The translations under genes and the position numbers were made by a program. The notes beneath the pieces were generated by a model. The model was not told where the DNA came from, searched no databases, and saw only the letters and a list, made by a program, of their open reading frames with translations. A stretch of DNA of 64,000 nt from Balneolaceae bacterium (GTDB lineage Bacteria > Bacteroidota > Rhodothermia > Balneolales > Balneolaceae): contig JAXHMM010000006.1 of NCBI GenBank assembly GCA_034521445.1, positions 310,001 through 374,000 on the forward strand, read 5' to 3'. Shown here in pieces: positions 1,844 through 5,198 of this stretch (position 1 is the stretch's first letter; every line of letters starts with the position of its first letter).

Positions 1844-2015
1844 CCCCTCATCCCTTTCTCAGAAGTCCGCACGGGTGATGGCGCAACATCCTCGCACCGC
1901 TTTTCACGGCTACTTTATCTGTTGACACTCTCCCATAATATTGCGATTGTTTCAAAGCTCTTACACACCCCCCGCTGATGGCGGGTGCGTTGAATGCCAG
2001 TTTCATCCCGTTTAC

Positions 2016-3419
2016 ATGTCTGACTACAAGTTTTTCGAGCAGGTCAACCGTGCATTTGACAAGGCTGCCAGTCATTCCCGGTTTGAAAAGGGCCTGCTGG
2101 AGCAGATCAAGATCTGCAACAACGTTTTGCATATCACCTTTCCCCTCCGCCGCGACGACGGCACCATCGAAGTGATCCAGGGCTGGCGCGTGGAGCACAG
2201 CCATCACAAGCTGCCCACCAAGGGCGGCATCCGCTTCAGCAAGGCTGTCAACGAGGACGAAACCACGGCCCTGGCCGCCCTGATGACCTACAAGTGCGCG
2301 GTGGTGGACGTCCCCTTCGGCGGAGCCAAGGGCGGGGTCCGTATTGACCGCTCGAACTACTCGGAGGCGGAGATCGAGCGCATCACCCGCCGCTACACCT
2401 TCGAGCTGATAAAAAAGGATTTCATCGGGCCGGGAACCGACGTGCCGGCGCCCGACTACGGCACCGGCGAAAAGGAGATGGGCTGGATCATGGACACCTA
2501 TCGCCAGATCACCAACAACATCAATGCCGAGGCCTGTGTCACCGGCAAGCCCATTCCCCAGAGCGGCATCCGCGGGCGTACCGAGGCCACCGGGCGGGGC
2601 GTTTACTTCGGCATCAGGGAGGCATGCCGGAACGAGGAGGATATGAAACAGCTTGGCCTTGATCCCGGCCTGGAGGGCAAGACCTTCGTCATACAGGGAT
2701 TGGGCAACGTGGGCTACCACGCCGCCAAGTACCTCATCGAGGGCGGCGCCAAAATGGTGGGCGTCTCGGAAATCGAGGGATCCATCTACGACGAAAACGG
2801 CATCGACCTGGAAAAGCTCATGGCCTTCCGTGAGGAGACGGGTTCCATCCTTGGCTTCGGGGACACCAGAAAGCTGAACGGCAACAAGGCGGTGCTGGAG
2901 GCCGAGTGCGATATCCTGGTCCCGGCCGCTCTCGAAAACCAGATCAACAAGGAGAACGCCCCCAATGTCAAGGCGAAGATCCTCGGGGAGGCTGCCAACG
3001 GACCGACCACGGCCGACGCCCACGAGATACTGTCCAAGAAGGGCGTACTGATTATCCCCGATAACTATCTGAACGCGGGAGGGGTCACCGTCTCCTATTT
3101 CGAATGGCTGAAAAACCTCTCCCACGTGCGTTTCGGGCGTATGGAGAAGCGCTTCGAGGAGACCAGCTACCGAAATATCCTGGGTGTGATCGAGAATATC
3201 TCCGACCGCACCTTTACCGAGGAGGAGCTCCAGGGCCTGGCCAAGGGAGCCGGCGAGTACGACCTGGTGGACTCAGGCCTGCAGGAAACCATGATCGTGG
3301 CCTACAACGAGATTAATTTACTGCGCAAGAAGCACGATATTGACCTGCGCACGGCGGCTTTCCTGAGCGCTATTGAGAAGGTGGGCATCATCTACGAGCA
3401 GATGGGTATTTTCCCCTGA
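2016..3419 (+). CDS. gdhA: Glutamate dehydrogenase (Glu/Leu/Phe/Val family)
   Basis: A 467-residue enzyme that interconverts glutamate with 2-oxoglutarate and ammonia using a nicotinamide cofactor. Visible signatures are LPTKGGIRFS (about 66-75, substrate-binding Lys), PFGGAKGG (about 100-107, catalytic Lys region), GTDVPAPDYGTGEKEM, GRTEATGRG, the dinucleotide fold GLGNVG (228-233) followed by SEIEGSIYD, and NAGGVTVSYFEW near the C-terminus. I chose ATG 2016, giving MSDYKFFEQV, because residues encoded upstream of it do not match the family. The acidic residue after the second beta strand suggests NAD preference, but this is uncertain. The gene is likely monocistronic; the hairpin downstream has its T-run on the opposite strand. 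Confidence 0.93.
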   Translation: MSDYKFFEQVNRAFDKAASHSRFEKGLLEQIKICNNVLHITFPLRRDDGTIEVIQGWRVEHSHHKLPTKGGIRFSKAVNEDETTALAALMTYKCAVVDVPFGGAKGGVRIDRSNYSEAEIERITRRYTFELIKKDFIGPGTDVPAPDYGTGEKEMGWIMDTYRQITNNINAEACVTGKPIPQSGIRGRTEATGRGVYFGIREACRNEEDMKQLGLDPGLEGKTFVIQGLGNVGYHAAKYLIEGGAKMVGVSEIEGSIYDENGIDLEKLMAFREETGSILGFGDTRKLNGNKAVLEAECDILVPAALENQINKENAPNVKAKILGEAANGPTTADAHEILSKKGVLIIPDNYLNAGGVTVSYFEWLKNLSHVRFGRMEKRFEETSYRNILGVIENISDRTFTEEELQGLAKGAGEYDLVDSGLQETMIVAYNEINLLRKKHDIDLRTAAFLSAIEKVGIIYEQMGIFP

Positions 3420-3437
3420 TCCGCAGGCAAAAAAAAA

Positions 3438-3471
3438 CCCCGTCCTCCCGGCGGTGCCGGAAGAAACGGGG
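3438..3471 (-). terminator. Nested hairpin with T-run on the minus strand
   Basis: CCCCGT (3438-3443) pairs with ACGGGG (3466-3471) and encloses a second perfect stem, CCGGC/GCCGG (3448-3460). An A-run (3429-3437) lies on the left side, so only a minus-strand transcript would end in the U-tract of an intrinsic terminator. There is no minus-strand gene to the right, so it may simply mark the end of gdhA or block antisense transcription. The rest of the 3420-3613 gap shows no gene or tRNA. Confidence 0.55.
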
Positions 3472-3613
3472 ACAAGGAATCTGGATACGTAATCTACAGA
3501 AGGTTTCCTTGTTTTGACGGTTATCGATAAGGAGTAATCGTTTGTAAGCCCCGTTATGTAATAACCGCTGAACAGTACCTGTTACGAAGCGGAGCCTGAA
3601 GAGTTACACTGTC

Positions 3614-3712
3614 ATGATCTCTTTCTACCTCATCATGTTCGTGTTGCCGGTGCTTATTGTCGGGCTGGCCGTTTTTCTCTCGGAAAGGGAAAAGGGTACC
3701 TTCAATGGATGA
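3614..3712 (+). CDS. 32-residue membrane peptide, putative symporter accessory protein
   Basis: A short frame starting at ATG 3614 encodes 32 residues. It begins MISFYLIMFVLP, forms one membrane helix of about 20 residues, and ends in the charged tail SEREKGTFNG. Its stop codon overlaps the start of the symporter by eight bases (3705-3712), the hallmark of translational coupling. Short single-helix proteins encoded immediately upstream of sodium:solute symporters are a known arrangement, and tiny accessory subunits have been proposed for this transporter family. No sequence family could be verified here. The coupling and the clear helix are the evidence that it is a gene. Confidence 0.55.
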   Translation: MISFYLIMFVLPVLIVGLAVFLSEREKGTFNG

Positions 3713-5198
3713 AACCCAAGCCGTACAGCTGGCGGTGGACCAGACCGCCGTCTACGCCTTCGTAGGCTACCTGTTGCTCCTGGTGGGGATCGGCCTCTAC
3801 TCCGCACGCTTTTCATCGGAGGGTATCAGCGAATTCTTTATCGGGGGCCGCAAAATGAACCGCTTTGTGGTGGCCCTCTCCGCGGTGGTATCCGGCCGGA
3901 GCGCCTGGCTGCTGCTCGGCGTGACCGGCATGGCCTACGCCCAGGGCGCCAACGCGGTTTGGGCGGTGGTGGGATACACCACGGTGGAGCTTTTCCTTTT
4001 TCTCTATTACGCCCGCCGTCTGCGCAACTTCAGCGAAAGCTACGACTGCATTACGGTACCTGATTTCTTTGCCGAACGCTTCAACGACCGCAACGGCTAC
4101 CTGCGTATGGCCCTGGTGGCCGTCTTTCTCATATTTATGGTAGGTTATGTCTCCGCACAGTTCGTGGCCGGCGGCAAGGCCTTCGCCTCCAGCTTTCACA
4201 TCAGCCAGACCAGCGGCATCCTGATCACGGCCGCCATCATCCTGGCCTATACCGTGGTCGGCGGCTTTCTGGCGGTGAGTCTCACCGACATGTTCCAGGC
4301 CATTTTCATGATATTCGCCCTGGTGGTACTGCCCATGATCGCCATCGCCGACGCAGGCGGTCTGGGCACCGTTCTTTCGCAGCTGACCGATATGGAGGGT
4401 GCCGCCTTTGTGGATCCGGCGGCCATTACTCTCGGGGGACTTGCCGGATTCCTGGGCATAGGCCTGGGATCGCCCGGGAACCCGCACATCCTCTCCCGCT
4501 ACATGTCCATCGACGATCCCAAACAGCTCCGCTGGACGGCCGTGATCGGTACCGTCTGGAATGTGGTTATGGGCTGGGGCGCCATTTTCATCGGACTGGC
4601 CGGACGGGTGTACTTCCCCGAGGCGGACCTGCTGCCGGCGGCCGACACCGAAAATCTCTATCCCGTGCTCGCCCAGCAGCACCTCCATCCCGCTGTTTTC
4701 GGGGTGGTGGTAGCCTCCATTTTTGCCGCCATCATGTCCACCGCCGACTCCCAGCTTCTGGTGGCCGCCTCGGCGGTGGTACGGGACATCTATGACCGCA
4801 TTATTTGCAAGGGACGTGATATTTCCCAGCAGAAACTGGTGCGCTACAGCCGCCTCGTGGTCGTTGGACTGGTGGCCGTTTCCCTGGTCTTTGGCCTTCT
4901 GGCGCAGGAGCTGGTCTTCTGGCTGGTACTCTTTGCATGGGCCGGACTGGGCGCCACCATCGGTCCCACTTCCATCCTGGCTCTCTACTGGCGCGGCACC
5001 ACGCGGGCAGGTATCTTCGCCGGACTGCTGACCGGCACCGTGGTTACCATCGTCTGGTACTACACTCCGGTGCTCAAGGACAACCTCTACGAGCTTATTC
5101 CCGCTTTCTTCCTGAGTCTTCTGGCTACCTGGGCCGTCAGCAAGCTCACGCGCAAGCCCGAGCGCATCGACGAGGTTTTCGTGGAAATGGACAAATAA
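3705..5198 (+). CDS. Sodium:solute symporter (SSS family, PutP-like)
   Basis: A 497-residue polytopic inner-membrane protein with about 13 hydrophobic helices. The N-terminal part carries FFIGGRKMNRFVVALSAVVSGRSAW, the characteristic unwound first-helix region of the SSS family, followed by GVTGMAYAQG. Residues downstream such as ITVPDFFAERF and IMSTADSQLLVAASAVVRDI match the PutP (sodium/proline) branch. It couples inward sodium flow to solute uptake; proline or a related amino acid is the best guess. ATG 3705 is chosen because it overlaps the small upstream membrane peptide gene; an earlier in-frame ATG (3657) would add a basic, non-homologous leader. Proline uptake next to glutamate dehydrogenase would make metabolic sense. 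Confidence 0.88.
   Translation: MDETQAVQLAVDQTAVYAFVGYLLLLVGIGLYSARFSSEGISEFFIGGRKMNRFVVALSAVVSGRSAWLLLGVTGMAYAQGANAVWAVVGYTTVELFLFLYYARRLRNFSESYDCITVPDFFAERFNDRNGYLRMALVAVFLIFMVGYVSAQFVAGGKAFASSFHISQTSGILITAAIILAYTVVGGFLAVSLTDMFQAIFMIFALVVLPMIAIADAGGLGTVLSQLTDMEGAAFVDPAAITLGGLAGFLGIGLGSPGNPHILSRYMSIDDPKQLRWTAVIGTVWNVVMGWGAIFIGLAGRVYFPEADLLPAADTENLYPVLAQQHLHPAVFGVVVASIFAAIMSTADSQLLVAASAVVRDIYDRIICKGRDISQQKLVRYSRLVVVGLVAVSLVFGLLAQELVFWLVLFAWAGLGATIGPTSILALYWRGTTRAGIFAGLLTGTVVTIVWYYTPVLKDNLYELIPAFFLSLLATWAVSKLTRKPERIDEVFVEMDK

What the first reader, a model, noticed from the sequence alone, without database searches (positions are those of the whole stretch)
3614..3712. Overlapping 32-residue membrane peptide before a sodium:solute symporter
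A single-helix peptide gene overlaps the symporter start by eight bases, so both should be made in equal or fixed ratio. It is too small for routine annotation. It could be a regulatory or stabilising subunit of the transporter, similar to small membrane subunits known from other transporters.
Basis: partly seen in the sequence, partly recalled or inferred. Interest (0 to 1): 0.55.

Follow-up and report, generated by a model that had tools for sequence, protein, structure and literature searches.

The report
Tiny partner helix of sodium symporter
A 32-residue membrane peptide encoded just in front of a sodium-driven transporter is a real, ancient, conserved protein, and when it disappears in evolution one outward-facing tryptophan of the transporter nearly always disappears with it, which suggests the two form a complex.

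Summary
The ORF at 3614-3712 encodes MISFYLIMFVLPVLIVGLAVFLSEREKGTFNG and overlaps the start (3705) of a PutP-like sodium:solute symporter by 8 bases.

It is a genuine protein family. Homologues with an invariant mid-helix proline stand directly upstream of orthologous symporters in 48 of 69 scorable Balneolales loci, 19 of 19 distinct Bacilli genomes, and Calditrichota, KSB1 and Acidobacteriota. Codon-level selection is clear: pN<pS in 435 of 435 pairs. No Pfam, NCBIfam or PHROGs model reaches significance.

The strongest result is a coupling between peptide and transporter. Symporter residue 291 (TM7, predicted lipid-facing side) is Trp or Tyr in 79 of 79 peptide-bearing rows, but in only 1 of 32 rows without the peptide. 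It changed in 6 of 7 separately scored loss lineages; the next best of 155 conserved columns changed in 3. Three Tyr rows carry Phe before the proline, where 76 of 76 Trp rows carry Leu, Val, Ile or Met.

Best explanation: a co-translated single-helix subunit docks on TM7 at residue 291 and stabilises or tunes the symporter, working like MAP17 on SGLT2. No relation to MAP17 or to the known small symporter subunit TIGR03647 was found. Physical binding and the effect on transport are inferred, not shown.

The parts
3614..3712 (+). 32-codon gene for the single-helix peptide (invariant Pro at residue 12)
3705..3712 (+). 8-base overlap (ATGGATGA): symporter start codon and peptide stop codon
   Evidence: 26 of 47 scored Balneolales rows have the same overlap
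3705..5198 (+). PutP-like sodium:solute symporter (SSS), 497 aa
   Evidence: model pLDDT 87.6, fold match SiaT 5nva Z 37.5 (rmsd 3.1, 459 aligned) and SGLT2-MAP17 8hez Z 34.0 (rmsd 2.8, 478 aligned)
4575..4577 (+). codon of symporter Trp291 in TM7, the residue that co-varies with peptide presence
1941..3419 (+). glutamate dehydrogenase gene upstream (start codon not settled); conserved neighbour in 44 of 70 Balneolales loci
3443..3465 (-). terminator-like hairpin, minus strand only; none found on the plus strand between dehydrogenase and peptide

Best explanation
The gene encodes a dedicated single-helix subunit of one clade of PutP-like SSS transporters. SHOWN: the peptide is a conserved protein under purifying selection, found only beside this symporter clade in the genomes searched, and its presence goes with an aromatic residue (Trp, rarely Tyr) at symporter position 291 in TM7. 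INFERRED: the peptide inserts N-out/C-in (no charge before the helix in most rows, positive tail after it), lies along the outer face of TM7, and packs its proline-kinked middle against residue 291. It is translated just ahead of the symporter so that it is present when the symporter inserts. It probably stabilises the bundle side of the transporter, or tunes its cycle, as MAP17 does for SGLT2. Lineages that lose the peptide replace residue 291 with a small or aliphatic residue (two rows with Phe), which makes the symporter self-sufficient.
For: Family across phyla, always adjacent. In 199 Bacillales genomes, strong hits (E<1e-10) fall in exactly the 14 genomes that hold the orthologous symporter, all beside it; the only other hit is weak and inside a 319-aa frame (the profile was built from these peptides, so this tests specificity, not presence). 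Purifying selection. Position 291: W 68, Y 2, gap 1 of 71 peptide-bearing rows; 0 W or Y of 31 rows without. After adding 11 loci and dropping L184 (gap) and L027 (no upstream DNA): 79/79 aromatic with peptide, 1/32 without. Changed in 6 of 7 loss lineages, next best of 155 conserved columns 3, or 2 by the strict count. Prediction written down before residue 291 was looked at in these 11 loci: 10 of 11 agree. Position 291 lies ~140 degrees from the conserved face of TM7, and partly differing positions 295 and 299 lie on the same side. Pro invariant in 79 of 79; P-1 is L/V/I/M in 76 of 76 W rows and F in 3 of 3 Y rows. Bacilli copies mostly follow a GGAGG-like ribosome site. The model lacks a helix equivalent to SGLT TM13, the helix that MAP17 binds (PMC10803289 and PMC10203128, passages).
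Against: L205 keeps Trp291 with no peptide upstream or within the 20 kb read; its whole genome was not searched. The tree-based sign test on well-supported branches has only 5 independent pairs (4-5 agree, 0 against, median p = 0.0625). The three Tyr rows are one clade, so the Phe/Tyr swap is one event. Two rows without the peptide carry Phe at 291. No complex was modelled, and residue 291's exposure is from a helical wheel, not coordinates. No expression or binding data. Whether it stabilises, activates or inhibits is not distinguished.
Confidence: 0.75

Rival explanations
1. Translation-coupling leader: the short frame serves to open the symporter start by terminating on it; the peptide product is incidental.
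For: 8-base overlap in 26 of 47 scored Balneolales rows; many other rows abut within a few bases.
Against: Amino-acid conservation with an invariant Pro across phyla, pN<pS in 435/435 pairs, copies 73 bases (L010) or ~250 bases (L019) upstream, and co-variation with a transmembrane residue of the symporter. Coupling may exist in addition.
Confidence: 0.06
2. The peptide is a turnover or inhibitory regulator of the symporter (MgtR-like adaptor for proteolysis, or brake) rather than a constitutive stabilising subunit.
For: Small helices with these roles exist for other transporters (PMC10710835, passages). Loss of the peptide is tolerated repeatedly.
Against: Coded in fixed linkage with its target rather than under separate control, in most members of the clade; near all-or-none coupling with residue 291 looks structural. 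Not excluded.
Confidence: 0.16
3. The peptide acts on something else (respiratory or dehydrogenase partner, membrane stress) and merely rides with the symporter.
For: Glutamate dehydrogenase lies upstream in 44 of 70 Balneolales loci.
Against: The dehydrogenase was not detected in the stretches held for the Bacilli, Calditrichota or Acidobacteriota loci scanned, where the peptide is kept; it is still upstream in 16 of 19 loci of the loss clade. Presence follows the symporter and its residue 291.
Confidence: 0.03

Closest known systems
MAP17 (PDZK1IP1), single-helix subunit of human SGLT2 and SGLT1
   Same: Single transmembrane helix that accompanies an SSS/SLC5 transporter; binds the less-mobile side of the transporter and promotes its function or surface expression (PMC10803289 and PMC10203128, passages read).
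   Different: No sequence relation found; MAP17 binds TM13, which this symporter lacks; MAP17 is not encoded in an operon with its partner (recalled).
TIGR03647 / DUF4212, 'sodium/substrate symporter small subunit'
   Same: Small membrane protein encoded upstream of an SSS gene; one copy is in this same genome beside another SSS gene (locus L117).
   Different: About 80 aa; serves a different SSS subfamily; no profile match to the 32-aa peptide.
DUF997 (YhdT type) and DUF3311 small partners of SSS transporters
   Same: Small membrane proteins encoded just before SSS genes (seen at L107 and L104).
   Different: Larger (75-107 aa), no sequence match to the peptide.
AcrZ, MgtU, MgtS and MgtR class of small membrane proteins that bind transporters
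   Same: 28-49 aa helices that stabilise or tune a transporter (PMC10710835, passages).
   Different: Different transporters; mostly not encoded in fixed overlap with their target (recalled).

Membership tests
SSS / PutP-like symporter (the large gene) | SSF domain above curated cut-off and LeuT-type fold | tested here: met
   PF00474 246.8 bits, cut-off 22.8; fold matches SiaT, SGLT2, vSGLT
PutP equivalog (TIGR02121) | score above 515.5 bits | tested here: not met
   392.2 bits: PutP-like, substrate not established
Sodium/substrate symporter small subunit (TIGR03647/DUF4212) | profile match | tested here: not met
   no match for the peptide even at E<=10
MAP17 | sequence relation to MAP17 | tested here: inconclusive
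   A1 profile finds only an unrelated chain at E 0.86 in all PDB chains; MAP17 was not compared directly and such short helices leave little signal
MAP17 | docks on TM13 of the transporter | tested here: not met
   symporter model (497 aa) aligns to SGLT2 residues 21-563 only, so no TM13 equivalent
Dedicated small subunit of an SSS transporter (functional kind) | conserved linkage and co-evolution with the transporter | tested here: met
Dedicated small subunit of an SSS transporter (functional kind) | physical complex and effect on transport | not testable with these tools
   needs co-purification and transport assay

The most novel reading that the evidence does not exclude
A large, ancient clade of bacterial PutP-like symporters (Bacillota, Balneolota, Calditrichota, KSB1, Acidobacteriota) is two-component. 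A proline-kinked mini-helix docks on an outward Trp of TM7, doing on the bundle side what TM13 plus MAP17 do in SGLTs. Loss of the mini-helix is tolerated once that Trp is replaced, so a single residue reports which symporters need a partner.
Probability: 0.55. Interest if true: 0.75.

Novelty: new variant of a known kind. Interest (0 to 1): 0.64.

Why it matters
SSS transporters are usually treated as one-gene machines in bacteria, and expression or structure work on this clade would normally leave the 32-aa gene out. If right, such preparations lack a subunit. The residue-291 code gives a direct, cheap test of how a single helix can be gained or lost as a transporter subunit, a bacterial counterpart to the SGLT-MAP17 question of what a lone auxiliary helix does.

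Tried and rejected
Considered and rejected: (1) chance ORF: excluded by conservation, selection and shuffles. (2) Known families: Pfam, NCBIfam and PHROGs gave only sub-threshold chance hits. (3) RNA element at the junction: no Rfam match. (4) Peptide copies without a symporter: the weak profile hits in Bacteroidota fall in longer frames or overlap other genes; I treat them as chance. (5) Fusion of peptide and symporter into one frame: none noticed in the loci read; no dedicated search. (6) Plasmid-borne orthologues: none at E<=1e-100. (7) Promoter: no sigma-70-like site, but that consensus does not cover these phyla.

Literature: ten searches of the held library. sought small SSS, PutP or symporter partners in bacteria and their listings showed no paper on such a peptide; (YhdT, PanF) listed papers that were not read; two searches found the SGLT-MAP17 papers. 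Subscription papers are mostly not held, so 'not in print' is not claimed. Whether RefSeq annotates the peptide was not checked.

Rows dropped or merged: L027 (only 77 bases upstream, undetermined) and L184 (fragment, gap at 291) were left out. Eleven of the L032-L053 loci are the same contigs as L004-L014 and L143-L169 loci and were not counted twice. L138 is the same genome as L057; L203 duplicates L043, L208 duplicates L054, L209, L210 and L213 duplicate L056, L127 and L059, and L214 duplicates L041. In one search the seven loss lineages were set by hand from the tree.

Full report
WHAT IS THERE. The frame at 3614-3712 is real and reads MISFYLIMFVLPVLIVGLAVFLSEREKGTFNG; its last eight bases are the first eight of the symporter gene that starts at 3705. 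The symporter is an SSS protein (PF00474, 4.7e-73), PutP-like but below the PutP equivalog cut-off. A glutamate dehydrogenase gene (1941-3419) lies upstream. The only terminator-like hairpin between them is on the minus strand.

CONSERVATION. I collected orthologous symporters from relatives, named genome contigs, Bacillales, Acidobacteriota, Bacteroidia, Bacilli and Calditrichota, and scanned upstream with a profile of the peptide. Balneolales: 48 of 70 loci have the peptide, 21 do not, and one (L027) has too little upstream DNA. Bacilli: 18 of 18 loci (L138 is the same genome as L057, so 17 genomes) plus L211 and L212, 19 of 19 genomes. Calditrichota: L041, L215, L216, L217 and L218 have it, L219 does not. 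KSB1: L046 has it. Acidobacteriota: L043, L048, L204, L206 and L207 have it, L205 does not. Eight Bacteroidales/Marinilabiliales loci and L049 lack it. Divergent copies share F..MF.LP..I or GIFF.L..VP..II, with the proline invariant. The Bacilli copies mostly have a GGAGG-like ribosome site in front. No Pfam or NCBIfam model matches.

IT IS A PROTEIN. On 30 ungapped Balneolaceae copies, pN<pS in 435 of 435 pairs. pN/pS is 0.37 in frame (pS is near saturation), 0.95 and 1.69 in the other frames. The pairs are not independent, but the frame contrast is clear. The profile hits 0 of 1400 shuffled upstream stretches at 15 bits, 47 of 70 real ones.

IT BELONGS TO THIS SYMPORTER. In 199 Bacillales genomes the Bacilli profile hits 15: the 14 with the orthologous symporter, each beside it, and one weak hit inside a longer frame. 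In 247 Bacteroidota genomes the 11 strong hits (E<=2.4e-8) all lie beside the symporter; the weaker ones, where looked at, are in other reading frames or longer ORFs. On a symporter tree of 102 rows the presence label needs 5 changes (shuffled mean 26.8): a Balneolaceae clade of 19 and a Bacteroidales clade of 8 lack it, with a few singles. The Bacilli and other distant groups have it, so presence is the likely ancestral state. In the clade of 19, the dehydrogenase is still upstream in 16 loci, so the neighbourhood stayed and the peptide went.

THE KEY RESULT. I asked which symporter columns change when the peptide is lost. Column 291 stood out: W 68, Y 2, gap 1 in 71 peptide-bearing rows; A 9, G 9, L 7, F 2, V 2, T 1, I 1 in 31 rows without. 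The second-best column differs by 0.76 in frequency against 0.97. I wrote the rule 'Trp or Tyr at 291 if and only if peptide' into the notebook before looking at residue 291 in 11 further loci; the upstream state of the four Acidobacteriota ones was already known. Ten of 11 agreed; L205 (Trp, no peptide found, 20 kb read) did not. Combined, 79 of 79 peptide-bearing rows are aromatic (Trp/Tyr) and 1 of 32 others. Scored by lineage, column 291 changed in 6 of 7 lineages without the peptide; of 155 columns at least 90% conserved, the next best changed in 3, or 2 if only residues never seen in peptide-bearing rows count. Sisters L207 and L219 (64% identical) split exactly along this line. The tree-based independent-pair test has only 5 pairs on well-supported branches (4-5 agree, none against, median p 0.0625), so the statistical weight rests on column 291 being an outlier rather than on that test.

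GEOMETRY. In the AlphaFold2 model of the symporter (pLDDT 87.6) residue 291 lies in helix 272-303, TM7 of the bundle by LeuT numbering (counted here). A helical wheel puts 291 about 140 degrees from the conserved face, with 295 and 299, which also differ in part, on the same side. That is the side expected to face lipid or a partner. The peptide has no net charge before its helix in 70 of 80 copies and a mean +1.5 after it, so N-out/C-in. Its proline and residue 291 would then sit at similar depth (inference). In the one clade with Tyr291 (L131, L137, L212) the residue before the proline is Phe, against Leu, Val, Ile or Met in 76 of 76 Trp copies, and P+3 is Val against Ile in 71 of 76. That is a plausible size swap but a single event.

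HOW IT PROBABLY WORKS. The peptide is made just ahead of the symporter, inserts as one helix and docks on TM7. The closest working analogue is MAP17 on SGLT2: a lone helix bound to the less-mobile part of an SSS-fold transporter, needed for stability or surface expression rather than for the transport step (PMC10803289 and PMC10203128, passages). MAP17 binds TM13, which this symporter lacks (model aligns to SGLT2 residues 21-563), so the site must differ. Known bacterial small SSS partners are different families: TIGR03647/DUF4212, which occurs in this genome beside another SSS gene, DUF997 and DUF3311. Stabiliser, tuner or brake cannot be told apart by sequence; I favour stabiliser because of the fixed linkage.

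LIMITS. No expression, binding or transport data; no complex model; substrate unknown; L205 is an exception. PMC10710835 (passages) tabulates small-protein regulators of bacterial transporters; none of the passages shown names a small helix for SSS transporters.

Noticed in passing
L030 1310-1474, L031, L085, L086, L139, L140, L141 (upstream of more distant PutP-type SSS genes; coordinates on the symporter strand): A second, different mini-helix family (pattern WFWLFVPM...ILS...YF.E) stands at the same place before another PutP-type clade, also without a significant Pfam or NCBIfam match where tested. Residue 291 there is F or L.
   Followed up: partly
L092 (before an SSS gene of G284) and L122 (own genome, contig C7): Further unclassified single-helix frames (33 aa; about 64-77 aa) immediately upstream of other SSS genes, so lone-helix partners may be common in this superfamily.
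   Followed up: partly
window 1941-5198: Glutamate dehydrogenase followed by the symporter, with or without the peptide, is found in 44 of 70 Balneolales loci, hinting that the substrate feeds glutamate metabolism.
   Followed up: partly
L145 (same contig as L036), symporter start: The usual symporter start is followed at once by a stop (ATG GAT TAA), so this symporter must start elsewhere or the assembly has an error; the peptide frame there runs on to 42 codons.
   Followed up: no
L205/L221 (G602): The one symporter found with Trp291 but no peptide; a distant copy in trans or a recent loss are both open.
   Followed up: partly
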